From a virus, in the IMG/VR virus record IMGVR_UViG_3300028920_000047, positions 42,582-106,581 of that record: a stretch of DNA of 64,000 nucleotides; one strand, given 5' to 3'. Shown piece by piece: positions 3,950-47,656 of this stretch; the first letter of the stretch is position 1, and every line of letters starts with the position of its first letter. Under the pieces are notes generated by a model. It saw nothing but the letters and a program-made list of their open reading frames with translations, did not search any database and was not told the DNA's origin. Both the position numbers and the translations under genes were made by a program.

Positions 3950-3950
3950 T

Positions 3951-4319
3951 TTATTTTCCTTCAAAGGTTACAACGTTTCCAGTTGCAATTCCACCAATAA
4001 TTATATATCGAAAATGCCATTGTATTTTAAATGGAAACTCATCACATTCAATTATTTTTTTTGTCGGTATTTTTGTTCTGATATATCCAGACCGAAATTG
4101 AAAATTTTCTTTAAATGCATAATATACTATATCAGAATCGTTTGTTGTTGAATATACATACAATTCGCTATCGGCAGTTACAATTTCAAACAATATATCA
4201 ACCGAATCTGAATCGCTAATTAACCAACTATCACCAGTAACATTATCCACAACATAGTTATCCGCAAAACAAACTGAATACATAAGTAATAAGATAAGTA
4301 TAAATAAAATTTTATTCAT
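3951..4319 (-). CDS. Small exported protein (122 aa)
   Basis: Signal peptide MNKILFILILLLMYSVCFAD, then a compact domain with alternating hydrophobic residues (YYAFKENFQFRSGY). Its N-terminus is nearly identical to the truncated gene at 1-108, so this small exported gene is duplicated in the cluster. Its ATG directly follows the stop of the 545-residue gene. Function unknown; possibly a partner of the neighbouring fibre-like proteins. Confidence 0.6.
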   Translation of the reverse strand: MNKILFILILLLMYSVCFADNYVVDNVTGDSWLISDSDSVDILFEIVTADSELYVYSTTNDSDIVYYAFKENFQFRSGYIRTKIPTKKIIECDEFPFKIQWHFRYIIIGGIATGNVVTFEGK

Positions 4320-12927: not shown

Positions 12928-13848
12928 TTAATTTGCCTCCTCAATTTTTTCTAATAAATATTCTCTTTCTAAATCTATATCTAACAATTTTCTTACACAC
13001 TGTCTTCCGGTTTCCTGGTTTTCAATTAAAAATCGCTGGTCACCGGAAGCCTTAAAAGTTTTATTATTTTCTAATCTAACCTCGAACATTTCTTTTCTAC
13101 CAGTTTTTACGACTTCAGATAAAACTATATCTTCATCTTTGTTATAAATAGAAATATAACAACCAATCTTATCCCCAATTCTAAACTCCTCATTATTAGT
13201 ATCTTTAAAAACAGTATCTGCAGTCCAACACCCAGCAATAACATCGTCGCCCTGCTGGCCTAATCCCTTCATAAAAGAAGAACCAACTCCAAAAGTAGTA
13301 TAAGGCATTTCTAACCACTCATCTTTTGTACCACGTATTCTTCCTATTTCTCGAAACCAGGGAGATTTTAACATAATTTCATTTAATTTTCCCCAATGAC
13401 CAGATTCTGATAAATTCTTTTTAATACTAAATAAAAACAGTAACAACTTTTTACCTTCTATAAAATCAAAATAGTCATGTGGATTTTTTAAACAGTGAAT
13501 ATAATAGTCGATATAAAGTAAACATAAATCAGCAAGATTTGATTTACCAATACCGATTGGTCCGGAAAGAATTATTTCGCATTTTTTAGGAGAGGAAAAA
13601 ATTTCCTGGAAAGCATCAAGCCAATAACTATATATTTTACCAGCTGCACCGCGTTCACGACTATATGTACTTCTACCTATATAATCTTTATGTTTAACAA
13701 AAGTAAGCACATCTACAGGAATTTCCCAAAAGTCCAAAGCATAAAGATTTTTATAAAGAGTTTTGTCACCGTTAAGAATTTGTTTTAAAGCTTGACTTTC
13801 GTCAACGCTCAAATCTATATTTTTTAACATTTTATAGAACTTATCCAC
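12928..13848 (-). CDS. Large terminase, N-terminal ATPase half fused to a split-intein N-half
   Basis: Residues 1-206 resemble the start of a phage large terminase: a Walker A motif SGPIGIGKS at residues 95-103 and the GLGQQGDDVIAG segment that normally leads into Walker B. At C207 the sequence changes to CWTADTVF...RIGDKIG...VVKTGRKEMFEVRLENNKTF...SGDQRFLI, which fits intein N-terminal splicing blocks. The protein stops after 100 intein residues, so Walker B, the nuclease domain and the intein C-half must be encoded elsewhere; they are not in this window. The block B histidine is replaced by Gln (SGDQRF instead of the usual xxDHRF). The GTG start lacks a clear ribosome site; an ATG lies at 13830. 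Confidence 0.7.
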   Translation of the reverse strand: MDKFYKMLKNIDLSVDESQALKQILNGDKTLYKNLYALDFWEIPVDVLTFVKHKDYIGRSTYSRERGAAGKIYSYWLDAFQEIFSSPKKCEIILSGPIGIGKSNLADLCLLYIDYYIHCLKNPHDYFDFIEGKKLLLFLFSIKKNLSESGHWGKLNEIMLKSPWFREIGRIRGTKDEWLEMPYTTFGVGSSFMKGLGQQGDDVIAGCWTADTVFKDTNNEEFRIGDKIGCYISIYNKDEDIVLSEVVKTGRKEMFEVRLENNKTFKASGDQRFLIENQETGRQCVRKLLDIDLEREYLLEKIEEAN

Positions 13849-32122: not shown

Positions 32123-32499
32123 AATATTTTGATAAAATCAAAAACATAGCATTTAAGATGAAGCCTTTTACACAAACCGATTTGACAAGCGATTATTGGC
32201 CAATAAATAAACATTTTTCCAATATAAATAACGCATTACCATTTATTACTTATATTAGTAAATATCTATATACCTTAAATAAAGATTATTTAATATTACT
32301 TTATAGATTTGTTCCACCACTGGATAATTCATTTATTAAATATCCTAAAAAACAAAAAATATTTAAAGATAAAAACGTATATGAAAAAATATTACAGCAT
32401 CTACAAATGTCCGAAAGAGAATTTAAATTGGTGTGGAAAATATTTCAACAGGCTGGTCATAGTGAAAAACAATTAAAGGAGATGTTTGGTATAAAATGA
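32119..32499 (+). CDS. Protein of unknown function (126 aa)
   Basis: Helical; TSDYWPINKHFSNINNALPF, and a C-terminal part (LQMSEREFKLVWKIFQQAGH, SEKQLKEMFG) that looks like a helix-turn-helix pair. Coupled to its neighbours by 4-base overlaps. Not recognised. Confidence 0.55.
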   Translation: MKYFDKIKNIAFKMKPFTQTDLTSDYWPINKHFSNINNALPFITYISKYLYTLNKDYLILLYRFVPPLDNSFIKYPKKQKIFKDKNVYEKILQHLQMSEREFKLVWKIFQQAGHSEKQLKEMFGIK

Positions 32500-33014
32500 A
32501 AGTAACAAAAATATTTAAAATAGAAACAGCTCATCGTGTAATAAATGCATACACAAAACGCTGTGCTGAAAATATTCATGGTCACAGTGCTCAAATCGAA
32601 TTTACTTTTGAAGCCGATTGTTTAGATGAAGCACAAATGGTTATAGATTTTACCATTATAAAAAAGAATTTAAAACCATTTATAGATATGTTTGACCACA
32701 CTTTGGTTATTTGTAACGAGGATATTCAATTAAAAAATATAGTTTGGCATTCAAATATAAATAAAAGATGGATAGTGGCCTCTTTTAACCCCACAGCAGA
32801 AATGTTTGCTAAATATTTTTACGAAGTTGCAAATTGGTTTTTTACTGGATTTGTTTATAATGTTAAATATTGGGAAACATCTACCGGTAATGCTGAATTT
32901 AATAAAGACGATTTATTTAAGGATAAACTTTTCAAAACGTTTTTAGTTGATGCTTCAAAAGAAATTAAACAAGAAAATATTGAATGGCAAATTATTCCCA
33001 AAAGGAAAAAATAA
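32496..33014 (+). CDS. queD: QueD, 6-carboxytetrahydropterin synthase
   Basis: 172 residues of the tunnelling-fold PTPS/QueD family. Zinc ligands H13 (ETAHRV), H28 and H30 (IHGHSAQIEF), catalytic C23, and the later FDHTLV and WETSTGNAEF motifs are all present. It converts 7,8-dihydroneopterin triphosphate, the FolE product, to CPH4, the second step towards preQ0. Part of a dispersed preQ0 set with QueE, QueC and FolE. Confidence 0.88.
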   Translation: MKVTKIFKIETAHRVINAYTKRCAENIHGHSAQIEFTFEADCLDEAQMVIDFTIIKKNLKPFIDMFDHTLVICNEDIQLKNIVWHSNINKRWIVASFNPTAEMFAKYFYEVANWFFTGFVYNVKYWETSTGNAEFNKDDLFKDKLFKTFLVDASKEIKQENIEWQIIPKRKK

Positions 33015-33016
33015 TA

Positions 33017-33364
33017 ATGTATGATTTAAAATTGGTCACTCCTATTGCAAAATTGATTTTCAAATTAAAAGAAAGAAAAAATGTACCATGGCAATGTTAC
33101 TGGAATGTGATAGGATGTTGTCAAGGTATTATAAGCAATCGTCACGACCCAGTAAAGGAATTTAAAAATTTAAAAGCAAATTTTGTTTATTATGAATTAT
33201 TAAAAAATGATAATATAAATTTAGAAGAATTATCTAAATTTTGTAATAACTGGCTTTGTAAAATATTAAAAATTGAATGGTTTGAAAAAAATGTAAAGTA
33301 CACAATAAAGAAAAGGTTAAAATTAGTTATTAAAAAACAAATGAAATATAGGGTGAAAAAATGA
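33017..33364 (+). CDS. Protein of unknown function (115 aa)
   Basis: The start at 33017 (MYDLKLVTP) follows AAAGGAA; an earlier in-frame start lies inside queD. Contains NVPWQCYWNVIGCCQGI and a basic C-terminus (KKRLKLVIKKQMKYRVKK). It sits between queD and queE, but nothing in it shows a pathway role. Confidence 0.5.
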   Translation: MYDLKLVTPIAKLIFKLKERKNVPWQCYWNVIGCCQGIISNRHDPVKEFKNLKANFVYYELLKNDNINLEELSKFCNNWLCKILKIEWFEKNVKYTIKKRLKLVIKKQMKYRVKK

Positions 33365-34032
33365 AAAAGTATAAAATCTCGGAAATATTTTTTGCATTAC
33401 AGGGTGAAGGCTCCACTATTGGAAAACCAAGTATTTTTGTTAGATATTTTGGTTGTCATTTAGCAAATAGAGGAAAACCTTGCCCCTGGTGTGATTCTAA
33501 ATACGCCTGGAATCAAAAATTGGGTAGTTATTCAAAATTATCTGGTGATGAGATTATTAGGGAAATAAAAAAATATGATTGTAAACATATTGTTATTACT
33601 GGAGGCGAGCCTTATTTACAATTAGAAACCTCAATTGATTGGTTATGGATTATGGATTTATGGAAACAGGGTTACACCTTTGAAGTTGAAACCACCGGGG
33701 ATTATAACCTCCGCAGTTATCCTGCTATTAGTCAATATAATATTTCTCCTAAAATTCAACAATCAATGATTGATTTTGATGATAAAATAGTATATGCACC
33801 CATAATCTTAAAATTTGTTTATGAACCGGGTAAAAAAAATATAGAAGGATTTATTTTTCAGGTAGTTAATAATAATCCGGGTATAAAGAATATTTATATA
33901 ATGCCACAATGTAAAAATAGAAAAGAATATTTGTTAAATTGTGGAGCTACAGAAAAATTTTGTATGGAAAATAATTTTATTTTTTCACCAAGATTACATA
34001 TTATAAACTGGGACGGTGAACGTGGTAAATGA
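33361..34032 (+). CDS. queE: QueE, 7-carboxy-7-deazaguanine synthase (radical SAM)
   Basis: 223 residues. FFALQGEGSTIGKPSIFVRY is the typical QueE start, the GGEP SAM-binding motif is in VITGGEPYLQ, and a three-Cys cluster binds the 4Fe-4S centre. The cluster spacing is C-x8-C-x2-C (CHLANRGKPCPWC), unlike the common CX3CX2C or the CX14CX2C variant. It converts CPH4 to 7-carboxy-7-deazaguanine. Overlaps neighbours by 4 bases. Confidence 0.88.
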   Translation: MKKYKISEIFFALQGEGSTIGKPSIFVRYFGCHLANRGKPCPWCDSKYAWNQKLGSYSKLSGDEIIREIKKYDCKHIVITGGEPYLQLETSIDWLWIMDLWKQGYTFEVETTGDYNLRSYPAISQYNISPKIQQSMIDFDDKIVYAPIILKFVYEPGKKNIEGFIFQVVNNNPGIKNIYIMPQCKNRKEYLLNCGATEKFCMENNFIFSPRLHIINWDGERGK

Positions 34033-34226
34033 TAATACAGGTAGCTTATGAAAATATAGATGGATATGATAGTTATGAGGTCGAATGTGATAATGCCTGC
34101 GGAGCAACAATGGTTATCGATATGTATTGGTATGATATGATACAAAAACTAAAAGATTCATGTTGGCAAATAAAAAAAGTAGGAGATAATTGGGAACATT
34201 ATTGCCCCGAGTGTTCTCAACATTAA
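34029..34226 (+). CDS. Small zinc-ribbon protein (65 aa)
   Basis: Contains CDNACGATMVIDMYWYDMI and HYCPECSQH, a pair of Cys motifs about 40 residues apart that could form one zinc ribbon. Overlaps queE by 4 bases. Function unknown. Confidence 0.5.
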   Translation: MIIQVAYENIDGYDSYEVECDNACGATMVIDMYWYDMIQKLKDSCWQIKKVGDNWEHYCPECSQH

Positions 34227-34241
34227 AGGAGTGTTAAAGTA

Positions 34242-34394
34242 ATGATATTAGTAAAGGACGTAATAAAATTACCGGCTAATTATTCCAGATTGAAGAAAAT
34301 ATTACGAATGCGAAAAAGAGAGAGAGAAAAATTAGATAAATATTTAGGAGTGGAACCTATACCACCGGGAAAATACAAATTAACAAGGGGATAA
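34242..34394 (+). CDS. Small basic protein (50 aa)
   Basis: AAAGGAG upstream of the ATG. A basic helix (RLKKILRMRKREREKLDKYL) and a short Pro-rich end (EPIPPGKYKL). Possibly nucleic-acid binding. Not recognised. Confidence 0.5.
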   Translation: MILVKDVIKLPANYSRLKKILRMRKREREKLDKYLGVEPIPPGKYKLTRG

Positions 34395-34399
34395 TAAAA

Positions 34400-34771
34400 A
34401 TGGAAAACACGATTTGTTCAAGATGTGGTAATAATATGGTTCATATGGGAATTTCGTTATCTAATAAACCCTTATTATGGTGTGAGTTTTGCGGATGTTT
34501 GCAAACATTTACTCCGGCAAAAAGTGATAATATTCCTATGGTTGAAGTTAATTTATCTGTATTAGGTTTAATGGTATGTGCCTCTATTTCTAACTACAAG
34601 AATAAAGTTTGGACAGAAAAAACTAAAGAAATTCAAAAAAATATAGAAAATTTATCAGCTAAAGAATACATACAGCAAACCAATCAAATCAAAGAAGAAA
34701 GAAACTATATGATTACCAAAATGACAACTGAAGATTTAAAAAAAGTTTTAAAAAAAGAGGAAATAAAATGA
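34400..34771 (+). CDS. Zinc-ribbon protein with helical C-terminus (123 aa)
   Basis: CSRCGNNM...LWCEFCGCLQTF forms an N-terminal CxxC-CxxC ribbon. The remainder is helical and charged (TEKTKEIQKNIENLSAKEYI). Overlaps the next gene by 4 bases. Function unknown. Confidence 0.5.
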   Translation: MENTICSRCGNNMVHMGISLSNKPLLWCEFCGCLQTFTPAKSDNIPMVEVNLSVLGLMVCASISNYKNKVWTEKTKEIQKNIENLSAKEYIQQTNQIKEERNYMITKMTTEDLKKVLKKEEIK

Positions 34772-35052
34772 TTTGGATAATAGTGTTTATTTATTTAGTA
34801 ATAGGATTGTTATTAACAATAAATCAAGCCAGGTTGACTACTAATGATTTTATAAGTTATAATCATAGTGGAACCTACGAACATTATCGGTTAATAGAAT
34901 ATTATTATAGATTTTTTAAAGGGGTAATATTTTTTCCATATTATTTAATCAAAGACATAAACAAATTATTTGGCTACAGACTTCTCAAAGGTATGTGGAA
35001 AAGTTGTACCTGGATAAAAAAACTAAAACTATTTTTTATAGGGAGAATCTAA
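34768..35052 (+). CDS. Small membrane protein (94 aa)
   Basis: An N-terminal hydrophobic span (MIWIIVFIYLVIGLLLTIN) is followed by Tyr-rich segments and a second partly hydrophobic part (FFKGVIFFPYYLI), then a basic end. Not recognised. Confidence 0.5.
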   Translation: MIWIIVFIYLVIGLLLTINQARLTTNDFISYNHSGTYEHYRLIEYYYRFFKGVIFFPYYLIKDINKLFGYRLLKGMWKSCTWIKKLKLFFIGRI

Positions 35053-35086
35053 TGAAAAAAGTTTTAAAAACGGGTCGGGATTTTCC

Positions 35087-35278
35087 ATGAGCAGAGAATT
35101 AACAAAATGTAAAAAATGTGACTCAGGTTTTTTAAAGCTGGTTAAAGAGTTAAATCCAAAAACCACCTGTGCAAATATGAATGTTATATTAAAATGTTTA
35201 ATATGTGGATATACCAACGTTTATCAAATTACTTCACATTTTCACAAAAATCAAATGAAGTGGAGAAAGAGGATATAA
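35087..35278 (+). CDS. Small zinc-ribbon protein (63 aa)
   Basis: KCKKCDSGFLKLV and LKCLICGYTNVY give a complete CxxC-x25-CxxC zinc ribbon. Its TGA overlaps the next ATG. Function unknown. Confidence 0.55.
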   Translation: MSRELTKCKKCDSGFLKLVKELNPKTTCANMNVILKCLICGYTNVYQITSHFHKNQMKWRKRI

Positions 35279-35859
35279 TGAAAAAAATTAAAATAGCTTT
35301 TGTTGGAACACATCGGGTAGGAAAGACTTCGCTGATGTTAAGACTGGCGGCCGATTTAAAAGAAGATGGTAGACATGTAGAAATTATAAAAGAAGTAGCT
35401 CGCCGTTGCCCGCTGGCTATAAATCAACAAACCACTTTAGAAGCACAAATGTGGATATTATTTGAACATATACAAAAGGAGTTTGAAGAATTACAACATT
35501 GTGATATTTTATTAACAGATAGAGCTATTTGTAATTATGGCTATTTGACCAAAAAATTTGGTAGATTAGAATTTCTTGAACCATTATTAAAAAACTGGTG
35601 TAAATCGTTTGACCTAATGATATACGTACCAATCGCTTTAAAAATAATTGACGACGGTGAAGCCATGACTGACCCCAGGGAACAGCGGGATTATGACCAG
35701 GAAATAAGAGATATACTGAACCTGTTTAAAGATTATATTAATTTAATAGAATTACCACAATATGATATATCAAAATGGAAAAATATAATTAACAGAAATG
35801 TATATAAGGTAATAAAAAAAGGAGAAAACAATGCCAAAAAAAGTGAAACGTACGAATAG
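35278..35859 (+). CDS. P-loop NTPase / nucleoside-kinase-like protein (193 aa)
   Basis: Start at 35278 after AGAGGA. Walker A in FVGTHRVGKTSLMLRLA; then IIKEVARRCP and DILLTDRAICNYGYL, a DR(A/S) pattern of the NadR/AAA_28 and nucleoside-kinase type; and later DPREQRDYDQEI as a lid-like segment. It probably phosphorylates a nucleoside or related small molecule; substrate unknown. Confidence 0.6.
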   Translation: MKKIKIAFVGTHRVGKTSLMLRLAADLKEDGRHVEIIKEVARRCPLAINQQTTLEAQMWILFEHIQKEFEELQHCDILLTDRAICNYGYLTKKFGRLEFLEPLLKNWCKSFDLMIYVPIALKIIDDGEAMTDPREQRDYDQEIRDILNLFKDYINLIELPQYDISKWKNIINRNVYKVIKKGENNAKKSETYE

Positions 35860-36523
35860 AGAACAAGCCGGTCTAAAAAATATTAAAAATATAAATAAAT
35901 TATATAAGTATTTACAAAATACTGACCTGGATGTTTTAAAAATAAATTTTGGTGGTATTTTGTTACAGTACCAGGACATACGGCCAGATATAAAAAATAT
36001 TTTAAAATATTTAAACAAATCAGATTTTTATACAGCACCATCAGCTACAAAATTTAATCGTGACAAAGAGGGTAGTTTATTAAGACATAGTTTAGCTACT
36101 TATTGGATATTTAATAATTTACCTTTAATTGATAAACAAAATATGCAAGAGGTTTCAATAGCTGTTATATGTTTGCTACATGATGTATGCAAAACCTTTT
36201 TTTATAAAAAGACTATGAAAAATGGTAAGTGGGACAAAACGGGTCAATGGGATAATAGTTGCTCCTGGTCAGAAAAGGAAGGATACGTAGTAGAGGATTT
36301 ATTACCACTTGGTCATGGTGAAAAAAGTGTTATCATTTTACAAAATTATATAGATTTAAAAGAGGAGGAAATGATTGCTATTCGTTGGCATCTTGGCTGG
36401 TTAGACCCGGCTTTACATTTCTTTTATCCATCTGGAGCACCTTTTAATAAAGCCCTAAGGGAGAATATGTATCTTATACCACTAATTACCGCTGACCAGT
36501 TAGCGGCGAATAGATTATTTTAA
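35831..36523 (+). CDS. HD-domain phosphohydrolase
   Basis: 230 residues with the ordered HD motifs: SLLRHSLATYW (first His), LLHDVCKTFFY (HD pair), LGHGEKSV and AIRWHLGW. HD proteins hydrolyse phosphate esters, often of nucleotides. It overlaps the kinase-like gene by 29 bases, which suggests a joint role in nucleotide metabolism (inferred). Confidence 0.7.
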   Translation: MPKKVKRTNREQAGLKNIKNINKLYKYLQNTDLDVLKINFGGILLQYQDIRPDIKNILKYLNKSDFYTAPSATKFNRDKEGSLLRHSLATYWIFNNLPLIDKQNMQEVSIAVICLLHDVCKTFFYKKTMKNGKWDKTGQWDNSCSWSEKEGYVVEDLLPLGHGEKSVIILQNYIDLKEEEMIAIRWHLGWLDPALHFFYPSGAPFNKALRENMYLIPLITADQLAANRLF

Positions 36524-36527
36524 TATT

Positions 36528-36878
36528 ATGAAATCAAATTTAATACAAAGTGAAAAATTTTATAAATGGTATGAAAATCATAGTGGTTATAAATTTGAGA
36601 TTATTGATGGAGTATTGTTCTCATGTAAAAATATATGTGCTATATATATAACTGATTTATTTTATATATCTATATGTAGTAATTATTGTTTACATAATAA
36701 TCTAACCAGGAGAAAAATATGGAATTTTAAAAATTTAGGCGAAGCTTATATTTATTATAAATACTTGATAGATAGTGAATCTTATTTAAAATATTTATAT
36801 AGAATTATAATAAGGAGGATTAGAAATGGACTGGGATGGATTTATAGAAGTGCCGCCAAAAACAGAAGGATATTTTAA
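36528..36878 (+). CDS. Protein of unknown function (116 aa)
   Basis: Tyr/Ile-rich with several Cys (LFSCKNICAIYI, ISICSNYC). No ribosome site is visible, and its 3' end overlaps the following well-started gene by 53 bases, so the true extent is uncertain. Not recognised. Confidence 0.4.
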   Translation: MKSNLIQSEKFYKWYENHSGYKFEIIDGVLFSCKNICAIYITDLFYISICSNYCLHNNLTRRKIWNFKNLGEAYIYYKYLIDSESYLKYLYRIIIRRIRNGLGWIYRSAAKNRRIF

Positions 36879-37350
36879 AGCCTCTTATTGGAATGGCCAA
36901 GAGGATAGAAAAATTTTATTAATAAGTGATGGTATAATGAAAATTATGGATGAAGTTTTATTAAAATTTAAAGATAAGGATAACAACGAATATACCAGGA
37001 AAGATTTAAAAAAAGTTCTTTTTGAAAGATTAAGGGAAAAATATGGTTTATCCCTGGATGTAGTATGTGATGACCAGATTAACCCACTAAATGAGACTAA
37101 AGATGATTTAAAAGTAGTTGTTTATAAATATATAGGTAGTAAAACTTTAAGAATTGCCCGGAGTTTAAAAGAACTTTTAAAAAGAAATAAAAACGGAGGT
37201 GATATAACAATGACCGAAGAAAAAACAAATGACCCTGTACCAATGGAAGATGAGAAAGAACAATCAACTAAAGATTTAAAAGAATTGAAAAAAGAGAAAA
37301 GTTCTATAGAACTGGATGAAAATAATTCTAAAAAATTGTTTAAGGGATAA
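36826..37350 (+). CDS. Protein of unknown function with acidic tail (174 aa)
   Basis: Strong AAGGAGG ribosome site. N-terminal domain begins MDWDGFIEVPPKTEGYFKAS and contains a helical, basic part (LRIARSLKELLKRNK); the last 45 residues are low-complexity and acidic (KTNDPVPMEDEKEQ). Possibly a DNA- or protein-binding factor. Not recognised. Confidence 0.55.
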   Translation: MDWDGFIEVPPKTEGYFKASYWNGQEDRKILLISDGIMKIMDEVLLKFKDKDNNEYTRKDLKKVLFERLREKYGLSLDVVCDDQINPLNETKDDLKVVVYKYIGSKTLRIARSLKELLKRNKNGGDITMTEEKTNDPVPMEDEKEQSTKDLKELKKEKSSIELDENNSKKLFKG

Positions 37351-37353
37351 AAT

Positions 37354-37434
37354 ATGGCACATACCAAAATATCTATAACAAAAGTTGATGAAAATAAAAT
37401 AATAAAAAAAGCGAGGTTCCCAGATGAGGATTGA
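37354..37434 (+). CDS. Possible tiny ORF (26 aa)
   Basis: ATG three bases after the previous stop with AAGGGA upstream; ends 11 bases inside the next gene. The product (MAHTKISITKVDENKI...) is too short to classify. Confidence 0.3.
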   Translation: MAHTKISITKVDENKIIKKARFPDED

Positions 37435-37633
37435 TATAGAACCTTTTTATTATATAGAAACTGAGGATGAAGAACTGATAAAAATAGTTGAATCTAAAAA
37501 AGATATTATATCAAAATTTACTATAAACCTCCTATTAAAAACCATGGGAGAAAGAATTCAATTAGCGGCGGATGACGCTACTTTAAAAACATTTTTACAA
37601 GGAGTGATGGATTATGAAGCGAGCAGTAATTAG
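37424..37633 (+). CDS. Small acidic protein (69 aa)
   Basis: Contains YYIETEDEELIKIVESKKDI and a helical end (LKTFLQGVMDYEASSN). Overlaps queC by 20 bases. Not recognised. Confidence 0.45.
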   Translation: MRIDIEPFYYIETEDEELIKIVESKKDIISKFTINLLLKTMGERIQLAADDATLKTFLQGVMDYEASSN

Positions 37634-38423
37634 TTGTTCAGGAGGTATGGATAGCACTTCGTTATTATTACAAATGTTGGTAAAGGGTTATCAGGTACAC
37701 GCTGTAGCTTTTTTATATGGGCAAAAACACAAAATTGAACTTGATAAATTACAAATGAATATAAATCAAATTTGTTTGAACGAAAAGTTAAAGAGTAGAC
37801 TTATATATAATATTATCGATTTATCCATACTCGGAAAATTATTTACTTCAGCATTGACCCAACCTGGTATAAGTGTGCCCGAGGGTTATTATACCGAAGA
37901 TATAATGAAACAAACGGTAGTACCTAATCGTAATGCTATATTTAGTTCAATTATATACGGTTATGCTTTAAGTTTAGCTAATAAGTATAATCAACAAATA
38001 GAAATATGTTTGGGTGTACATAGTGGTGACCATGCAATCTATCCCGATTGCCGGCCAGAATTTTATGATGTTTTAATAAAAGCTTTTAAAATGGGAAACT
38101 GGAATGCCAACAAAGTGAAATTCAATTTACCCTATTTAAAAAAGGATAAATATACCATATTGAAAGATGCTTTAGAAAATTGTAATAAATTGGATTTAAA
38201 TTTTAACATAATATTTTTTAATACTAATACTTGTTATCAACCCGACATAAATGGCATCGCCTGTGGTAAATGTGGTAGCTGTATTGAACGGATTGAGGCG
38301 TTTATGAGACTGGATAAAGAGGACCCAGTCAGTTACAAGGACGATTGGCAAACGGTTAAACAAAGAGTGGTAGATATGCAAAATAAGAATCAAGAAAAGG
38401 ATTTATTTAATCAAGGGGAGTGA
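37614..38423 (+). CDS. queC: QueC, 7-cyano-7-deazaguanine (preQ0) synthase
   Basis: 269 residues. PP-loop SCSGGMDSTSLL at the N-terminus, VVPNRNAIF and LGVHSGDHAIYPDCRPEF in the substrate region, and a C-terminal four-Cys zinc site (CYQP...CGKCGSC). Turns 7-carboxy-7-deazaguanine into preQ0 with ATP and ammonia, completing the pathway begun by FolE, QueD and QueE. No amidotransferase (Gat) domain is fused, in contrast to the Gat-QueC of some dG+ phages. Confidence 0.9.
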   Translation: MKRAVISCSGGMDSTSLLLQMLVKGYQVHAVAFLYGQKHKIELDKLQMNINQICLNEKLKSRLIYNIIDLSILGKLFTSALTQPGISVPEGYYTEDIMKQTVVPNRNAIFSSIIYGYALSLANKYNQQIEICLGVHSGDHAIYPDCRPEFYDVLIKAFKMGNWNANKVKFNLPYLKKDKYTILKDALENCNKLDLNFNIIFFNTNTCYQPDINGIACGKCGSCIERIEAFMRLDKEDPVSYKDDWQTVKQRVVDMQNKNQEKDLFNQGE

Positions 38424-38427
38424 TAAT

Positions 38428-39288
38428 ATGGAACCAAAAGAAAATATAGCAAATAAACTCAAACAATTAAAGGCCGAGCAAAACGCTCAAAATAAGATTA
38501 AAAAATTTATAATTGATGAAATGTTAAATAATAATGTTTCTTTTTACGTTGCTTATAATAAAGCAAAAATTCATCGTGGTAGCGACGTTGTTAACCTGAA
38601 TTATTTAGATTTGGAAATAGCGGTGGCCCAAGAAATAAGAGTAAGAAAACGTAACCAAAAGACTATTGACCAAAATCAAGGATTTACTACAGAAGCTGAG
38701 AAACCAAAAAAAGCCGACTTTGACTTAGACGGTGTAGCCCAATTTTATATAGAAAACGCTTTTGAGCAGATTCTTAGAGTAATGCAGCTTGATATAAAAG
38801 ACCCAAATTTAAAGGAAACACCGCACCGTATTGCTAAAATGTATATAAATGAATTATGCAAAGGATTATATGAACCGGAACCAAAATTTACCACATTTCC
38901 AAATCCCAAATATGATGAAATGGTTACATTGTTTAATATAAATGTGAAATCATTATGTTCCCATCATTTTTTACCTTTTATAGGTAAAGCCCATATTGGT
39001 TATATACCCAATGAAACAATTTGTGGTATTAGTAAATTAGTCAGAGTTGTACAATGGTTTATGAGACGTCCTCAGATTCAAGAGGGATTAACAGAACAGA
39101 TTGCTGATTACCTGGTTGAGAAATTAAATCCCAAAGGTGTAATAGTAGTTATAGAAGCACAACACCACTGTATGATAGTTAGAGGAGTAGAAGAATACGA
39201 TAGTATTATGAAAACAAGCGCAGTACGAGGAGTGTTTGTAGAAAATATTGGTGCCAGGAGAGAATTTTTTAATTTGAAAGGATTATAA
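38428..39288 (+). CDS. folE: FolE, GTP cyclohydrolase I with N-terminal extension
   Basis: 286 residues. The core from about residue 105 has the family pattern: ETPHRIAKMYINEL, SLCSHHFLPFIGKAHIGYIP (zinc Cys and catalytic His), SKLVRVVQWFMRRPQIQE and QHHCMIVRGV (second zinc ligand). It makes dihydroneopterin triphosphate from GTP, the first step of preQ0 synthesis. The first about 90 residues (Lys/Gln-rich helices) go beyond typical FolE and have no clear function. Four bases after queC. Confidence 0.88.
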   Translation: MEPKENIANKLKQLKAEQNAQNKIKKFIIDEMLNNNVSFYVAYNKAKIHRGSDVVNLNYLDLEIAVAQEIRVRKRNQKTIDQNQGFTTEAEKPKKADFDLDGVAQFYIENAFEQILRVMQLDIKDPNLKETPHRIAKMYINELCKGLYEPEPKFTTFPNPKYDEMVTLFNINVKSLCSHHFLPFIGKAHIGYIPNETICGISKLVRVVQWFMRRPQIQEGLTEQIADYLVEKLNPKGVIVVIEAQHHCMIVRGVEEYDSIMKTSAVRGVFVENIGARREFFNLKGL

Positions 39289-39292
39289 TAAA

Positions 39293-39535
39293 ATGTCCGA
39301 AACAACAATATTAAAAGAAAAAGAGATTGATTCAATTACCAGAATAATAGATTTAATGGAAAAGTGGAACCTGGTTTTACCGGAACTGTTCTCTTTAAAA
39401 TTATTGATAAATATAAATAATATAAAAACCGTAAATCATATAAATTGTCATAAGGCAGTTGATAAAATTTTAAATAGTGATATGAAAAAAGAAACTTTGG
39501 AAAAAATATTAAAAGAATATTTTTGGTGTGATTAA
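39293..39535 (+). CDS. Small protein of unknown function (80 aa)
   Basis: Helical (EKEIDSITRIIDLMEKWNLV, KETLEKILKEYFWCD). Lies between folE and the transporter-like gene. Not recognised. Confidence 0.5.
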   Translation: MSETTILKEKEIDSITRIIDLMEKWNLVLPELFSLKLLININNIKTVNHINCHKAVDKILNSDMKKETLEKILKEYFWCD

Positions 39536-39550
39536 AGGGAGGAAAATAAA

Positions 39551-40525
39551 ATGGTATTTTTACAATTATGTTTTATCGCTTGTTTAGTATTTGCTAATTT
39601 AACAGCAAATAAAATTTGTATACTATTTGGTATTCAATTTCCTGCAGGAGTTCTTACCTACCCTATAACTTTTCTAATTACTGATATTATGTCAGAAATT
39701 AAAGGTAAACACGCTACTCACAAATTAGTTAATCAAGGATTTATAATTAATATTATAATAATAGGATTAGTTTTTACTATGTTAAAAATTCCACAGGCTA
39801 TGGGTAGTGCAAAAGCCTTTCAATTAGTATTTTCGTCTACCTGGAGAATTATAATTGCATCAATGGTTGCTTATTTTATAAGCCAGCATATTGATGTTAT
39901 ATTATTTCATTTTTGGAAAAATTTAACAAAGGGTAAATGGTTATGGTTAAGAAATAATGGTTCAACAATTATAAGCCAGTTTTTTGATTCTACTATATTT
40001 TGTACTATTGCTTTTTATGGAATATTACCAAATAATATTTTATTTAATATTATTGTGGGACAATATATAATGAAGTGGTGTATAGCTTTATTGGATACTC
40101 CTTTTTGTTATTTTGGAGTATGGTATTATAAAAGTCATGGTGAAAAAACATACGAAATAAGCTGGCAAGCAAAATATTTTAAATATAATTATTATAAACA
40201 TCATAAATATTGTCCACAATGTGGCTACGATAAACACTCCTCAACTTTTCTCGGTACTATTCTTGATTTAAAAAACAAACACAAATATAAGGATAATAAT
40301 AGCGTCAAATGTTCAAGATGCGGCTGGACGGGTATAGTACATGACCTGGTATCAGGAGAAAAAAGAATTCCCTTTACAAAAGTCCCAAAAAAGTATAAAC
40401 AGGATTTACCCTTTACATCTCATAAACCACTAACTAAAGAAAAAGAGAAGGAAATATACCCAAAAAGAAAAATACAAAGGGTGCCGAAAGCACCGGATTC
40501 TCGCCCAACAATAGAGAAGGGATGA
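39551..40525 (+). CDS. YhhQ-like queuosine-precursor transporter fused to a zinc ribbon
   Basis: Residues 1-200 have about six membrane spans and YhhQ-family features: ANLTANKI near the start, FPAGVLTYPITFLITDIMSE and SQFFDSTIFC. YhhQ (COG1738) imports preQ0/preQ1. Residues 200-324 form a soluble tail with CPQCGYDKHSS (about 220) and CSRCGWTG (about 256), a zinc ribbon, then a Lys/Pro-rich end. E. coli YhhQ stops after the membrane part, so this is an unusual fusion. It sits between the preQ0 synthesis genes and the DpdA-like gene. GGGAGG ribosome site. Confidence 0.8.
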   Translation: MVFLQLCFIACLVFANLTANKICILFGIQFPAGVLTYPITFLITDIMSEIKGKHATHKLVNQGFIINIIIIGLVFTMLKIPQAMGSAKAFQLVFSSTWRIIIASMVAYFISQHIDVILFHFWKNLTKGKWLWLRNNGSTIISQFFDSTIFCTIAFYGILPNNILFNIIVGQYIMKWCIALLDTPFCYFGVWYYKSHGEKTYEISWQAKYFKYNYYKHHKYCPQCGYDKHSSTFLGTILDLKNKHKYKDNNSVKCSRCGWTGIVHDLVSGEKRIPFTKVPKKYKQDLPFTSHKPLTKEKEKEIYPKRKIQRVPKAPDSRPTIEKG

Positions 40526-40539
40526 GTGGAGATAATAAT

Positions 40540-40902
40540 ATGAAACATGAAAGCATTTTAACAATTTATCCAGAGTTAAATAATTTATGCAATAAACTAA
40601 AAGAAAAAGCTACATCGTATAAATCTGAAGCGTCATCTGAGATTAGATTATACATTATAGAGGAGTTAGAAAATATTGATAAATTTTTATCTAAATTAGT
40701 TAGTGAGAGAAAAATAATTAAATATCAAATTGTTATTTACGATTCAACTAATGGTTCAATAAATAATAATATAATAAACACCGAAATCAATATAAAGGAT
40801 TTTCCAATAGCAGCTTTTAAAAGAATCAAAATAGGTACGAAGGCGTTTTGTTACGGATTAACATTTCCATTCTGTAATAGGTCAGTAATTTCGGAGGGAT
40901 AG
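40540..40902 (+). CDS. Protein of unknown function (about 120 aa)
   Basis: I prefer the ATG at 40540 with GGAG 8 bases upstream; an in-frame ATG at 40522 overlaps the previous stop. Helical N-terminal half (LNNLCNKLKEKATSYKSEAS) and beta-rich C-terminal half. Not recognised. Confidence 0.5.
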   Translation: MKHESILTIYPELNNLCNKLKEKATSYKSEASSEIRLYIIEELENIDKFLSKLVSERKIIKYQIVIYDSTNGSINNNIINTEINIKDFPIAAFKRIKIGTKAFCYGLTFPFCNRSVISEG

Positions 40903-40906
40903 ACCA

Positions 40907-41086
40907 ATGTTTAAATTATTATTAAATTTATTTAGAAGTGAGAATTATTCTAAAAAATCTAAAGAAAAATATTTAACAAGTATGTTCTATAAATTAAATA
41001 TGAATGAAGATATTTGGTTACCTGTTTATCCAGGTAAAACCAAAATTAAAATGATTGAACCAAATATACCGTGGCCAAGAAAATAA
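40907..41086 (+). CDS. Small basic protein (59 aa)
   Basis: Well-placed CGGAGGG ribosome site. Basic, with LRSENYSKKSKEKYLTS-like helices and a Pro-rich end (EPNIPWPRK). It directly precedes the dpdA-like gene. Not recognised. Confidence 0.5.
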   Translation: MFKLLLNLFRSENYSKKSKEKYLTSMFYKLNMNEDIWLPVYPGKTKIKMIEPNIPWPRK

Positions 41087-41099
41087 ATAGGAGAAAACG

Positions 41100-42230
41100 A
41101 TGCCAAAAAAAGTCAATAAAAAAGATATAAGATATTTACCCGCTCTATTTCCAAATATGCAAAATCAAATAATAGGCTATGAACATCGCGGATTTAAACT
41201 TGATTTTTGGCAGGATAATCCAGTGTTTAATTATAAACATATTCTAATTGCTTTTAACTTTTTTGGCCACAAAAATAGAAGACAAATATTTGGTAAAAAT
41301 AATAAAAAATTATTCATTTTTGGTGATAGCGGGGGTTTTGCCAGTGCTTCACAAAATTTAAATATAAATCCTATTGATGTTATAAAATGGCAACAGCAGA
41401 ATTGTAACATGGGTGTATTACTGGATGTACCGCCCTTTATATTTACCGGGGTAGCTGGTTTGAATAAAACGAATAATGTAATTTATAAGAAAGCTTTGAA
41501 ACAAACTATAGAAAATATACAAGAGGCTAAACAATATGTAAAATCTAATTATCAGTGGTGGGGTGTTATACAAGGCAAAACCTTTGCTCAGAAATTACAT
41601 TGGTATAAGGAGATATCTAAAATACATAACTTTAAAAATTGGGCCATCTCGGCCAAACCTTCTCATAATTATTATCAAATAATAAGCTCCATAGCTTTAG
41701 CTTATAAATACAAAATAAAAAATATACACCTATTTCAACTAAGCGCCGTACGCTCGATTGCATTACTTATTTTATGTCAAAAACATTTAGATAATTACTT
41801 TGATAAAATATATTTCGACAGTAGTACACCCAGTAGAATGGGTTTGGGAAATAGATATTTACAGATAACCGCAGAAAGAAATAAACTTATTAAATTCTCT
41901 GACCGGTTAAGTAAGAAAAAACAGGAACAACTTATAAAAGAGTTTGACTGTCAATGCGAAGTATGTAAACATTTTGAAACAAAAGAATATTTTTTACCTT
42001 CCTGGCAAGGTAGTGGTATTATCTTTTTACACGATTTTAATATACTCGTGCAAAAAATCAAAGAGCTAAAAAAATATTCAAAAGACGATTTGATTGAATT
42101 TTCAAGAGTACCTAAAAACAAGGTAAAAGTATTATTAGATAATATAACCAATTTACAAAAAATTAAAAAATTAGAAGAATTTGTTGTACCCAGAAAGTCC
42201 AATAATGTGTTTTCGTTATTAGAAAAATGA
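41100..42230 (+). CDS. dpdA: DpdA-like DNA guanine transglycosylase (TGT superfamily)
   Basis: 376 residues. FIFGDSGGFASA (about residue 73) and VLLDVPPFIF (about 105) hold the two aspartates expected of tRNA-guanine transglycosylase folds; WWGVIQGKTFAQKL resembles the substrate loop; DCQCEVCKHF (about 284) matches the CxCxxC zinc site. Phage DpdA enzymes swap guanine in DNA for 7-deazaguanine bases. The surrounding preQ0 synthesis genes and transporter support DNA rather than tRNA as target. Predicted product is dPreQ0, since no QueF or Gat enzyme is visible in the window. Confidence 0.82.
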   Translation: MPKKVNKKDIRYLPALFPNMQNQIIGYEHRGFKLDFWQDNPVFNYKHILIAFNFFGHKNRRQIFGKNNKKLFIFGDSGGFASASQNLNINPIDVIKWQQQNCNMGVLLDVPPFIFTGVAGLNKTNNVIYKKALKQTIENIQEAKQYVKSNYQWWGVIQGKTFAQKLHWYKEISKIHNFKNWAISAKPSHNYYQIISSIALAYKYKIKNIHLFQLSAVRSIALLILCQKHLDNYFDKIYFDSSTPSRMGLGNRYLQITAERNKLIKFSDRLSKKKQEQLIKEFDCQCEVCKHFETKEYFLPSWQGSGIIFLHDFNILVQKIKELKKYSKDDLIEFSRVPKNKVKVLLDNITNLQKIKKLEEFVVPRKSNNVFSLLEK

Positions 42231-44554
42231 AAAAAAGAAAAACTTTTAAAATAAAGATAAAAACTTGTAACGACTGTAAAGCTAATAGAAGAAAATATGT
42301 CAAAGGAAATTATACCGATTCAGATATTTTAATCCTCTTTGATAATCCTATTATTAGAAAACCACAAAATAAATCTTATACCAATTATAAAAAGATATTA
42401 GAGTTATTTCAAGATTTAAATCCGAGTTATGATTTTTTAACTAAATGTACCTTTAACAGTTATAATTTACAATCGGCAGAAATTTGTTACCAAAAATATA
42501 TAAAAAAAGTAATAAAAAAATTTAAAATTATTGTTTTAACCAGTCAATTCTGTTTTTCGTTTTTCTTTCCAGGATATAAATATGATGCAATCGGTATTGG
42601 TAATTTTATATCCAAAAAAATAGATAATAAGGAATTAAAATTCTATTCTGTAGGCTGGGATATATTATTAAATAAAAAATATGTAAATAGATTAAAAAAA
42701 TATTTAGCCGGAACACTATATAATAAAAAATATAAAATAATTACTACTGATAAAGAATTTAAAGAATATGCAAAAATAATTAAAACTAAAAGTATTGTTG
42801 GTTTTGATATGGAAAATAATACAACAAATCCTTTTCAGCCCGGATGGTTATTATATAGTATGGCTATATCATGGAAAAAAGATTTTTCAGTTTGTTTTCC
42901 ATACGAACATCCTGAATTTAAAGATATAATATTACGTAATAAATTTAAAAATTTTATATCAGGATTATTAGTTTCAAAAAATATTAGAAAGGTTATACAT
43001 AATGCTAAATATGATATAAAAATGACCAGAGCCAAAGGTTTTCCCGATGCTCAAAATGTAGCATGTACATGGTTAATGGCTTATTTAAGAAACGAACGCC
43101 GAAAATATTATAAACTAAAGACCCTGGTACCAGAATTTTTAGATGGTTATGCGGATATAGTTTTAGACTTTGAAGATACCCAGTTATCAAGATTGGGTTA
43201 TTATAATAATTTTGATGCGGATATGCATTTACAGCTTTACAATTTATTCTATAATGATTTCAGTGGAAAATTAAGATATGCTTTTGAAGAAATTTGTTCA
43301 ATAATGCCTACTCTTTTTGCGGACATAGAGTTGAATGGTATAAAAATAGATTTAAAATATTTAACCAAATTAAGTAAAACTTTGAAAATGAATGAAAAAA
43401 AAATATTACATAAATTATATAAAATTGAACCATCTTTGAAAAAAATAAATCTTGATTCCCACCAACAATTGGGAGATGTGCTTTTTAATAAATTAAAAAG
43501 ACCAATAATAGAAAAAACTCCTCAATCAAAACAACCTAAATTAAATGAAACCATTCTAAAAATATTATCAGTTAAATATCATTGTAAAATATCGGAACAA
43601 ATTTTAAAATTGCGTAAAAATCATAAATTTTTTAATACTTATGTAAAAAAAGTCAAATCAGATTGGTTATATCCTGACGGTAAAACAAGATGTGATTATT
43701 TAATAACCGGTACTACAACCGGCCGGCCTGCAGGACAAAACCCGAATCTTTTAAATATACCTCGGGATAAAAGAATAAAAAATTATTTTATAGCTGATAA
43801 AAATTGTAACTTGTTTCAAATCGATTTTTCACAGGCCGAATTACGTATTATGGCGTCATTATCAAATGATAAAGCAATGATAAACGAATATAACAAAAAG
43901 AATCCTGATTTACATACCCTCACCGCAGTACAAATATCTAACAAACGTCCAGAAGATATAGAATATGAAGACCGGCAAAAAGGTAAAGTAACAAATTTTG
44001 GTTTAATTTATTTAATGTCAGCTAAAAGTTTAATGAATGATGCTAAATATAAATATAATGTAAAGATGACATTACCTGAGGCTCAAAAATATCATGATAA
44101 TTGGTTTAAAAAATATAAAAATGTTAGAGAATTTCATAATAAAATAGCTTGGCAAATAAAGACCAAATATTATGTTGAATCCCCGTTTGGTAGACGTCGG
44201 CGTTTTCCCGAACTAAAGAATGAAAAAATATTATATCAAGATGATTTCAATAATCTACACCGCCAAGCAGTAAATTTTCCTATTCAATCGACTGCGTCCG
44301 ATATAACGGTTTCAACTCTATATAAATTATATTTATTTTTAAAAAAATATAAAATGAAATCAAAAATAATATTGACCGTTTATGATAGTGGTATATTAAA
44401 CGCTTATCCTGATGAAATTGAAGATATATATTATCTTGTTAAAGATTTAGAAAATATGATAAAATACGACTGGTTAAAAGTACCAATGATTATTGATTGT
44501 AGTATTGGTAATCGTTGGGGGGAATTAAAAGATTATAAGGGAGGTAAATTATAA
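42227..44554 (+). CDS. Family A DNA polymerase with 3'-5' exonuclease and N-terminal UDG-like domain
   Basis: 775 residues. Residues 1-165 start with a CxxC element and resemble inactive uracil-glycosylase-like domains on some phage polymerases (SPO1 type). Exonuclease motifs: FDMEN near 190, VIHNAKYDI and YYNNFDADM. Polymerase motif A is DFSQAELRIM near 532. Motif B is RQKGKVTNFGLIYLM near 582, where Leu replaces the usual Gly after Tyr. Motif C is LTVYDSGI near 717: the catalytic Asp is kept, but the usual HDE is YDS. Overlaps dpdA by 4 bases. Probably the replicative polymerase working with the clamp. Confidence 0.88.
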   Translation: MKKRKTFKIKIKTCNDCKANRRKYVKGNYTDSDILILFDNPIIRKPQNKSYTNYKKILELFQDLNPSYDFLTKCTFNSYNLQSAEICYQKYIKKVIKKFKIIVLTSQFCFSFFFPGYKYDAIGIGNFISKKIDNKELKFYSVGWDILLNKKYVNRLKKYLAGTLYNKKYKIITTDKEFKEYAKIIKTKSIVGFDMENNTTNPFQPGWLLYSMAISWKKDFSVCFPYEHPEFKDIILRNKFKNFISGLLVSKNIRKVIHNAKYDIKMTRAKGFPDAQNVACTWLMAYLRNERRKYYKLKTLVPEFLDGYADIVLDFEDTQLSRLGYYNNFDADMHLQLYNLFYNDFSGKLRYAFEEICSIMPTLFADIELNGIKIDLKYLTKLSKTLKMNEKKILHKLYKIEPSLKKINLDSHQQLGDVLFNKLKRPIIEKTPQSKQPKLNETILKILSVKYHCKISEQILKLRKNHKFFNTYVKKVKSDWLYPDGKTRCDYLITGTTTGRPAGQNPNLLNIPRDKRIKNYFIADKNCNLFQIDFSQAELRIMASLSNDKAMINEYNKKNPDLHTLTAVQISNKRPEDIEYEDRQKGKVTNFGLIYLMSAKSLMNDAKYKYNVKMTLPEAQKYHDNWFKKYKNVREFHNKIAWQIKTKYYVESPFGRRRRFPELKNEKILYQDDFNNLHRQAVNFPIQSTASDITVSTLYKLYLFLKKYKMKSKIILTVYDSGILNAYPDEIEDIYYLVKDLENMIKYDWLKVPMIIDCSIGNRWGELKDYKGGKL

Positions 44555-46330: not shown

Positions 46331-46931
46331 CAATCATCAAATCATCGGATTATCCTGGAAATATAAGGATATTATAAATGGCCAGCGGGAAATAAATTGT
46401 CCCTGGAAGAAAACTTTTAAACATCAATTGTCAGAGATTTGTTTTTTTTGTCCTAATAAATTTAGAAAAAAATGTTTAAAACTTATATTTTCAAGCCCTG
46501 ATTACGAAATTAGAGATATACCAATAGGAAAAGATATGATTACTTATAGAGGCAAAAAACCCACCATAATAGCAGGAATAAAGAATGATAATACCAATTT
46601 AACACAAGAAGATGGATATTATAAATTAGTTAAACATAATTTACCTACCTATTCAGAATTTTGTTTATGCTGTTATATGATTCGAGATAATTTAAAAGAA
46701 AAAAAATTAGATAAACATAATCAACTATTATGTAATCGATGTTTTCAAAGATTTAGGGAGTGGAAAAACTGTAAAATAAATAAAAGAAAAACCATAAGAA
46801 CATTTATAAGAGAATATCAAAAAATATTACTTGAGGTAGAAACCGAAATAATTGCTCGACAACAACGAGCAATTAAATTAAGATATAAAGTTCAAAAGAC
46901 AAAAATAAATTATGAGAAATTTAAAGTATGA
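46311..46931 (+). CDS. Cys-rich, probably zinc-binding protein (206 aa)
   Basis: TTG start with GGAGA upstream. Contains CFFCPNKFRKKC and, further on, FCLCCYMIRD with LLCNRCFQRFREW, giving two likely zinc sites, then a basic C-terminus. The CxxC...CNRC arrangement is like the fingers of the protein at 44922-45839, so the two may be related. Function unknown. Confidence 0.5.
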   Translation: MKTLKNSNHQIIGLSWKYKDIINGQREINCPWKKTFKHQLSEICFFCPNKFRKKCLKLIFSSPDYEIRDIPIGKDMITYRGKKPTIIAGIKNDNTNLTQEDGYYKLVKHNLPTYSEFCLCCYMIRDNLKEKKLDKHNQLLCNRCFQRFREWKNCKINKRKTIRTFIREYQKILLEVETEIIARQQRAIKLRYKVQKTKINYEKFKV

Positions 46932-47656
46932 AAATTATTAAACCACCGCCATTTGGCGAAAATTTTAAATTAAAAAAATATTTAACTGCTAAAACATGGA
47001 GTAAATTATTAAAAAGGGAATTTCAAAAACCATATATGAAAAAATTAGAAAATAAACTTGAACAAGACTATTTTAATTATAATATATTACCCAAAAAACA
47101 GGAAATATTTAAAGCATTAAATTTAACAGATTATAATAAAGTTAAAGTTGTACTATTTGGCCAAGACCCTTACCCAGTTCCGGGACATGCTCATGGACTT
47201 GTTTTCGGAGTGCCAGATGATTTACAACCAAAACCTCCATCATTGAAAATCATATTTAAAGAAATTAAGCGGAACATGAGTATAAAAATACCAACAAATA
47301 GAAGTTCTTTATCCGGCTGGGCCAAACAAGGTGTATTATTGCTAAATGTAATATTAACTGTTATGGCTTATTCTACAGGCTCCCATAAAAATTACGGCTG
47401 GGAAAAATTTACTGATACAATAGTCAAATTATTATCAAAAAGAAATAAACCTATAATATTTGTATTATGGGGAGCTTTTGCTAAACAAAAAAAATATTCT
47501 ATAAAAAATAGAAACCATTATATATTAGAAGCGGCTCATCCAGCATCAGAGTGTTATGGTGGTCAAAATTTTACCGGCTGTGGTCATTTTAGCCAAATAA
47601 ATAATATATTAAAAAGTAATAAAGAGGAACCTATAAATTGGCGAAATATATCATAA
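46928..47656 (+). CDS. ung: Uracil-DNA glycosylase, family 1
   Basis: 242 residues with FGQDPYPVPGHAHGLVFGVP (catalytic Asp, residues 77-96), LSGWAKQGVLLLNVILTV and the late His motif AAHPASECYGG (HPAS in place of the usual HPSP). Removes uracil from DNA. A phage that carries its own UDG presumably has uracil-free DNA and uses it for repair. Overlaps the previous gene by 4 bases. Confidence 0.88.
   Translation: MKIIKPPPFGENFKLKKYLTAKTWSKLLKREFQKPYMKKLENKLEQDYFNYNILPKKQEIFKALNLTDYNKVKVVLFGQDPYPVPGHAHGLVFGVPDDLQPKPPSLKIIFKEIKRNMSIKIPTNRSSLSGWAKQGVLLLNVILTVMAYSTGSHKNYGWEKFTDTIVKLLSKRNKPIIFVLWGAFAKQKKYSIKNRNHYILEAAHPASECYGGQNFTGCGHFSQINNILKSNKEEPINWRNIS

What the first reader, a model, noticed from the sequence alone, without database searches (positions are those of the whole stretch)
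32496..42230. Complete preQ0 pathway plus transporter plus DpdA: self-sufficient 7-deazaguanine DNA modification
FolE, QueD, QueE, QueC, a YhhQ-like transporter and a DpdA-like transglycosylase are all present within 10 kb, interleaved with unknown small genes. Known phage systems often have either synthesis or uptake; having both is redundant. With no QueF or Gat domain visible the expected base is dPreQ0. Interleaved genes at 33017, 34029, 39293, 40540 and 40907 could be accessory steps.
Basis: partly seen in the sequence, partly recalled or inferred. Interest (0 to 1): 0.75.

Follow-up and report, generated by a model that had tools for sequence, protein, structure and literature searches.

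The report
Phage preQ0-DNA modification gene cluster
A bacterial virus carries every gene needed to make an altered form of the DNA letter G and swap it into its own DNA, probably to hide from host defences; the kind of system is known, but the swapping enzyme belongs to a little-described branch.

Summary
Within 32496-42230 of a 106.6-kb T4-like myovirus record lie QueD, QueE, QueC, FolE, a YhhQ/QPTR transporter and a TGT-fold enzyme, all on the + strand of one dense operon, with the catalytic residues I checked present. No QueF, glutamine amidotransferase, ArcS or QueA is found in the record. This is the known 'preQ0 synthesis + DpdA, no tailoring enzyme' phage class; two members (CAjan, Rosebush) carry dPreQ0 by mass spectrometry.

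Synthesis plus transporter has published precedent (haloviruses HCTV-1, HCTV-16), though it is a minority pattern: 4 of 79 viral YhhQ contigs carry three or more synthesis genes, 61 carry a 9g-type DpdA. The interleaved small genes have no relatives in any other deazaguanine cluster I fetched.

The less ordinary part is the transglycosylase. It is neither 9g-type DpdA nor within the cellular tRNA-TGT branch. It keeps a TGT-like zinc site and belongs with a broad, mostly unannotated set of phage enzymes (PA5oct, Motura, Vibrio 2.275.O, many uncultured viruses), remotely linked to DpdA2 of phage nt-1. The transporter has an unusual zinc-ribbon-like tail. Most likely product: dPreQ0. DNA as target is inferred, not shown.

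The parts
32496..33014 (+). QueD (6-carboxytetrahydropterin synthase)
   Evidence: PF01242 4.7e-23, phrog_2389 9e-27; Cys/His-x-His and Asp-His columns kept against E. coli QueD
33361..34032 (+). [quoted passage not shown]
   Evidence: phrog_2076 7e-41; three Cys aligned with E. coli CX3CX2C, with five extra residues between the first two
37614..38423 (+). QueC (7-cyano-7-deazaguanine synthase), no fused Gat domain
   Evidence: PF06508 1e-46 over residues 3-232; P-loop and Zn Cys kept
38428..39288 (+). FolE (GTP cyclohydrolase I) with about 100-aa N-terminal extension
   Evidence: TIGR00063 5e-59 over cut-off, residues 108-282; the QueF hit at this place is a T-fold cross-match below cut-off
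39551..40525 (+). YhhQ/QPTR queuosine-precursor transporter (residues 1-190) with a C-terminal extension holding two CxxC pairs (zinc-ribbon-like)
   Evidence: TIGR00697 1.8e-50 over cut-off, PF02592 1.5e-53; extension absent from E. coli, HCTV-1, phiFN37 and Vibrio 2.275.O homologues
41100..42230 (+). DpdA-like TGT-fold transglycosylase, 376 aa, DSGGF/FDSST motifs and CxCx2C...H zinc site
   Evidence: TIGR00432 4e-9; relatives L076 3e-25, L077 1e-22; tree; AF2 pTM 0.80, TGT and DpdA (7ui4) as best solved matches
42227..44554 (+). DNA polymerase family A; start overlaps the end of the transglycosylase gene by 4 bases
   Evidence: PF00476 5e-84; overlap. Not part of the pathway; a polymerase gene also lies close downstream of the TGT gene in L076 and L077

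Best explanation
The phage makes preQ0 from GTP (FolE, QueD, QueE, QueC), can also take up a 7-deazaguanine precursor through its YhhQ-type transporter, and uses the TGT-fold enzyme at 41100-42230 to exchange guanine for preQ0 in its own DNA (general base/nucleophile Asp76 and Asp240 by homology, structural zinc at Cys284/286/289/His311). With no tailoring enzyme in the record, the base is most likely dPreQ0, replacing a fraction of G and shielding the DNA from host restriction. Shown here: the genes, the motifs checked, the fold, the gene neighbourhood, the family placement. Inferred: catalysis, DNA rather than tRNA as substrate, the identity of the base, direction and substrate of transport, the protective role.
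For: Complete preQ0 gene set and motifs. The transglycosylase's close relatives sit inside preQ0 clusters next to replication genes: L076 QueC-TGT-FolE-DNA polymerase with touching or overlapping ends; L077 QueD-QueE-FolE-QueC-x-TGT, DNA polymerase three genes on. Among 36 family loci of at least 12 kb, 30 carry at least one of FolE/QueD/QueE and 20 all three (many loci are related, so not independent). More distant members lie in deazaguanine clusters of Motura and Vibrio 2.275.O; Iyer et al. already read the Motura and PA5oct systems as deazaguanine incorporation into DNA (PMC7824862). Haloarchaeal plasmid homologues sit with QueD/QueE and BREX-type ATPase genes. No QueA, so no sign of a viral queuosine-tRNA route; no QueF, GATase or ArcS. 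The same gene set gives dPreQ0 in CAjan and Rosebush, and deleting dpdA removes it in CAjan (PMC6884629).
Against: No member of this TGT branch close to the window has been tested biochemically as far as I found. A retained TGT-type zinc site and a length near that of bacterial Tgt also fit a tRNA enzyme. DpdA2 of nt-1, the nearest relative with phage-DNA data, goes with only about 0.11% dPreQ0. The record may be incomplete, so a tailoring gene could be missing; host enzymes could also act. The QueE cluster motif spacing is atypical.
Confidence: 0.7

Rival explanations
1. The genes do modify DNA, but the final base is not dPreQ0: a host or unrecognised viral enzyme converts it (dADG, dG+), or the enzyme inserts an imported base such as preQ1.
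For: Phages lacking any amidotransferase can carry dADG (Salmonella 7-11, MED16). QPTR-family transporters differ in substrate: E. coli's takes preQ0 and preQ1, that of Chlamydia takes queuine (PMC11130926). DpdA2 of nt-1 may accept several intermediates.
Against: No QueF, GATase or ArcS in the record; this gene set gave almost pure dPreQ0 in CAjan and Rosebush. The interleaved genes have no relatives in other deazaguanine clusters.
Confidence: 0.17
2. The transglycosylase acts on tRNA, and the phage boosts 7-deazaguanine in host tRNA to help translation.
For: Zinc site and size like tRNA-TGT; family-level profile hits are to arcTGT; best solved fold matches are tRNA-TGTs.
Against: It falls outside the E. 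coli Tgt/arcTGT branch; a profile of window+L076+L077 scores nt-1 DpdA2 at 44 bits, an arcTGT fragment at 17 and E. coli Tgt at 6; no QueA; no tRNA gene in the window; gene order ties it to DNA polymerase; the 376-aa protein has no room for the C-terminal PUA domain of arcTGT (family knowledge).
Confidence: 0.1
3. The cluster only supplies precursor (for folate or host queuosine), and the TGT-like gene is inactive or does something else.
For: FolE is shared with folate synthesis; about 48 phages have preQ0 genes without DpdA.
Against: Catalytic and zinc residues are retained across relatives at about 25% identity, which implies selection on activity.
Confidence: 0.03

Closest known systems
preQ0-type phage systems of Escherichia phage CAjan and Mycobacterium phage Rosebush (group 2 of Hutinet et al. 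2019, PMC6884629)
   Same: FolE, QueD, QueE, QueC plus a DpdA-type transglycosylase and no amidotransferase or QueF.
   Different: Different transglycosylase lineage with a zinc site; a YhhQ transporter is present here.
Haloviruses HCTV-1 / HCTV-16 (PMC8651126)
   Same: Complete preQ0 genes next to YhhQ.
   Different: They also carry QueF; no TGT-like gene of this family was found at that locus (a DUF6610 gene sits beside FolE); their YhhQ lacks the C-terminal extension.
Vibrio phage 2.275.O (MG592671)
   Same: TGT-like gene of the same broad family, YhhQ, a queuosine-biosynthesis (QueC) gene and FolE close together.
   Different: Has QueF; a much larger genome; TGT-like protein of 596 aa without the CxCx2C motif.
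Pseudomonas phage PA5oct and Achromobacter phage Motura deazaguanine systems (PMC7824862)
   Same: TGT-like enzyme of the same broad family, with QueE (PA5oct) or QueD, QueC, QueE and FolE (Motura) nearby; Motura's also has CxCx2C.
   Different: No YhhQ among the genes annotated near the TGT gene; very low sequence identity (about 16% to Motura in the structural alignment).
DpdA2 of Vibrio phage nt-1 (phrog_10773)
   Same: TGT fold, DSGG motif, linked by a window+L076+L077 profile (1.6e-11) and by fold.
   Different: No zinc motif; pairwise similarity to the window enzyme is not significant (E 8.2).

Membership tests
Phage preQ0-DNA modification system, synthesis class without amidotransferase | FolE, QueD, QueE and QueC encoded by the phage | tested here: met
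Phage preQ0-DNA modification system, synthesis class without amidotransferase | A DpdA or DpdA2 transglycosylase encoded by the phage | tested here: inconclusive
   TGT fold and active-site residues present, but it is not clearly in either named subfamily
Phage preQ0-DNA modification system, synthesis class without amidotransferase | No Gat-QueC, ArcS or QueF/QueF-L | tested here: met
   record not known to be complete
Phage preQ0-DNA modification system, synthesis class without amidotransferase | dPreQ0 in virion DNA | not testable with these tools
   needs mass spectrometry of phage DNA
DpdA, phage 9g type (phrog_887) | Sequence similarity to 9g DpdA; clusters with it in a tree | tested here: not met
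   No significant PHROG hit; 9g-family profile gives 6 bits, E 0.26; the 9g clade excludes it with 100/99 support
DpdA2, phage nt-1 type (phrog_10773) | Sequence similarity to nt-1 DpdA2 | tested here: inconclusive
   Pairwise E 8.2 but 1.6e-11 with a three-sequence profile; L077 hits phrog_10773 at 4e-8; nt-1 is a long branch in the tree
tRNA-guanine transglycosylase (Tgt / arcTGT) | Score over the curated cut-off of TIGR00430, TIGR00432 or TIGR00449 | tested here: not met
   Only TIGR00432, 35 bits against a cut-off of 350
tRNA-guanine transglycosylase (Tgt / arcTGT) | TGT fold with two catalytic Asp and CxCx2C...H zinc site | tested here: met
   zinc geometry in the model not measured
YhhQ/QPTR transporter | TIGR00697 over cut-off | tested here: met
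   171.5 bits against 50.95
YhhQ/QPTR transporter | Transport of preQ0/preQ1 | not testable with these tools
   needs a complementation test

The most novel reading that the evidence does not exclude
The zinc-bearing transglycosylases of the window, L076 and L077 are a third, separately derived class of DNA-deazaguanine insertases closer to the archaeal TGT stem than either DpdA or DpdA2; and the two supply routes are not redundant, because the transporter (with its zinc-ribbon-like tail) brings in a base other than preQ0, so that the phage can write two different deazaguanines into its DNA.
Probability: 0.07. Interest if true: 0.65.

Novelty: new variant of a known kind. Interest (0 to 1): 0.33.

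Why it matters
It adds a deeply divergent, experimentally untouched branch to the set of phage enzymes that probably swap guanine for 7-deazaguanines in DNA, and shows that this branch is common in uncultured viruses yet mostly annotated 'hypothetical'. If confirmed, such enzymes would be new tools for placing 7-deazaguanines in DNA and would widen the search for restriction-resistant phages. The system itself is of a known type.

Tried and rejected
Direct relatives of this virus: no DNA match in 50,697 phage records; the window's TGT, YhhQ and DNA polymerase proteins as single queries found nothing in IMG/VR, so selection on the genes could not be measured. Single-sequence AlphaFold of the TGT was useless (pLDDT 32); the 33-sequence alignment gave a usable model. 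A two-sequence profile against PDB sequences gave only chance helical matches, such as haemagglutinin stalks. The apparent full-length tblastn match of the YhhQ protein to HCTV-1 (99% cover) runs on into the neighbouring FolE gene; the annotated HCTV-1 protein lacks the extension. A QueF hit in the record is FolE cross-matching below cut-off. The idea that the interleaved small genes are pathway steps was rejected for lack of any relative in other deazaguanine loci; weak Pfam hits to them (DUF61, DUF1104) are below cut-off. The tree is not rooted, several end branches exceed 1.5, and arcTGT is represented by a 221-residue fragment, so only 'outside both reference clades' is claimed.
Full report
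What is there. The window is bases 42582-106581 of a 106,581-base IMG/VR virus record. Structural genes outside the window identify a T4-like myovirus (major capsid Gp23 5e-33, portal Gp20 2e-37). From about 29.7 kb to 47.7 kb of the window, genes run on the + strand, many with 1-4-base overlaps: 5'-3' exonuclease, QueD, QueE, QueC, FolE, YhhQ, a TGT-like gene, DNA polymerase A and a uracil-DNA glycosylase.

The synthesis genes look functional. QueD keeps its Cys/His-x-His and Asp-His residues, QueC its SGGxDS loop and four zinc cysteines, FolE its Cys-His-His and distal Cys (sequence). QueE keeps three cluster cysteines, but as CX8CX2C instead of CX3CX2C; variants of this spacing are known (the NCBIfam model TIGR04508 is named for CX14CX2C). 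No QueF, class-I or class-II glutamine amidotransferase, ArcS or QueA is found in the record. The record is not known to be complete.

The transporter. The first 190 residues are a clear YhhQ/QPTR protein (TIGR00697, 171 bits against a cut-off of 51). About 130 further residues with two CxxC pairs follow, absent from the E. coli, HCTV-1, phiFN37 and Vibrio 2.275.O proteins. Of 79 IMG/VR contigs that encode a relative of the transporter, 61 also carry a 9g-type DpdA, often adjacent, but only 4 carry three or more of QueC/QueD/QueE/FolE (L174, L182, L204 = HCTV-1, L239); none carries a transglycosylase of the window's broad family. So uptake plus DpdA is the usual arrangement, and uptake plus synthesis is a minority one with published precedent in HCTV-1 and HCTV-16 (PMC8651126) and a further example in Vibrio phage 2.275.O.

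The transglycosylase. It has no tblastn match in GenBank phages and no significant PHROG. Working outwards through L052/L068, PA5oct, Phosso and Vibrio 2.275.O, and an alignment-based scan of IMG/VR, I collected 80 further viral loci. The closest are L076 (3e-25) and L077 (1e-22). Five relatives, the window included, share invariant DSGG, DSS and CxCx2C...H residues. In L076 the gene lies between QueC and FolE, just upstream of DNA polymerase; in L077 it follows QueD-QueE-FolE-QueC. Of the 36 family loci of at least 12 kb, 30 have one or more of FolE/QueD/QueE and 20 have all three; these loci are partly related to one another. The association with preQ0 synthesis is therefore real and not peculiar to this record.

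Which family. All-against-all comparison and a maximum-likelihood tree put 9g-type DpdAs in one clade (100/99), E. coli Tgt with an arcTGT fragment in another (97/92), and the window with L076 (95/88) in an unresolved zone that also holds L077, haloarchaeal plasmid TGT-like proteins, the Motura group and the PA5oct/Phosso/2.275.O group. A window+L076+L077 profile scores nt-1 DpdA2 at 44 bits, arcTGT (fragment) at 17, E. coli Tgt at 6 and 9g DpdA at 5. An AlphaFold model built on 33 sequences (mean pLDDT 77, pTM 0.80) matches tRNA-TGTs and the DNA preQ0 insertase DpdA (7ui4) among solved structures at similar scores, and among viral models the Motura and nt-1 DpdA2 proteins. It is thus a TGT-fold enzyme of a broad DpdA2-like group, not a 9g DpdA, and not inside the small cellular-TGT reference clade. 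The tree is unrooted with long branches, so finer placement is not claimed.

How it most likely works. By homology with TGT, the enzyme exchanges guanine for preQ0 by base exchange. In phages DNA insertion has been shown for 9g DpdA; the same gene set without an amidotransferase gave about 28% and 32% dPreQ0 of all G in Rosebush and CAjan, and deleting dpdA removed it in CAjan (PMC6884629). The Motura and PA5oct systems were already read as deazaguanine synthesis and incorporation into DNA (PMC7824862). I therefore expect dPreQ0. That the substrate is DNA, that the base is dPreQ0 and that it protects against restriction are inferences. A tRNA role is the main functional rival and is disfavoured by the tree, the profile scores, the lack of QueA and the gene order beside DNA polymerase. 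A different final base is the other rival.

Novelty. The system type is known; synthesis plus transporter is known; the enzyme branch is known only as unannotated or broadly annotated genes. What is new is this particular combination (zinc-bearing DpdA2-like enzyme, full synthesis, tailed YhhQ, no tailoring enzyme) and the recognition that the branch is widespread and tied to preQ0 genes. I rate it a new variant of a known kind, of moderate-to-low interest.

Noticed in passing
window 12928-13848 (-) and G000:C1 34889-36334 (-) (L003): The terminase large subunit appears to be split by a trans-splicing intein: the N half ends in an intein start (GDDVIAG|CWTADT...), and the C half, about 19 kb away in the record, begins with an intein end (...HNIIVHN|CLDELSAADN). 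The Pfam intein match is weak (0.041), so this rests on the sequence.
   Followed up: partly
window 33361-34032: QueE has a CX8CX2C radical-SAM cluster motif instead of CX3CX2C.
   Followed up: partly
window 39551-40525, residues 190-324: YhhQ transporter carries a C-terminal extension with two CxxC pairs not seen in four compared homologues.
   Followed up: partly
L169 and L168 (haloarchaeal plasmids pHsi139, pBNX82-4): Short TGT-like proteins sit with QueD/QueE and BREX-type ATP-binding genes, suggesting archaeal DNA-modification defence clusters annotated only as tRNA-guanine transglycosylase.
   Followed up: no
window 46928-47656: The phage encodes a uracil-DNA glycosylase superfamily protein (PF03167 over cut-off) close downstream of its DNA polymerase A.
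   Followed up: partly
window 1664-3964 (-) and G000:C1 40220-42340 (-): Two neighbouring fibre-like genes begin almost identically with a signal peptide (MRIIISILF.LLFLSNIYAWDTIYVNGQKLYRIVVNG), and several other fibre-like proteins also start with signal peptides.
   Followed up: no
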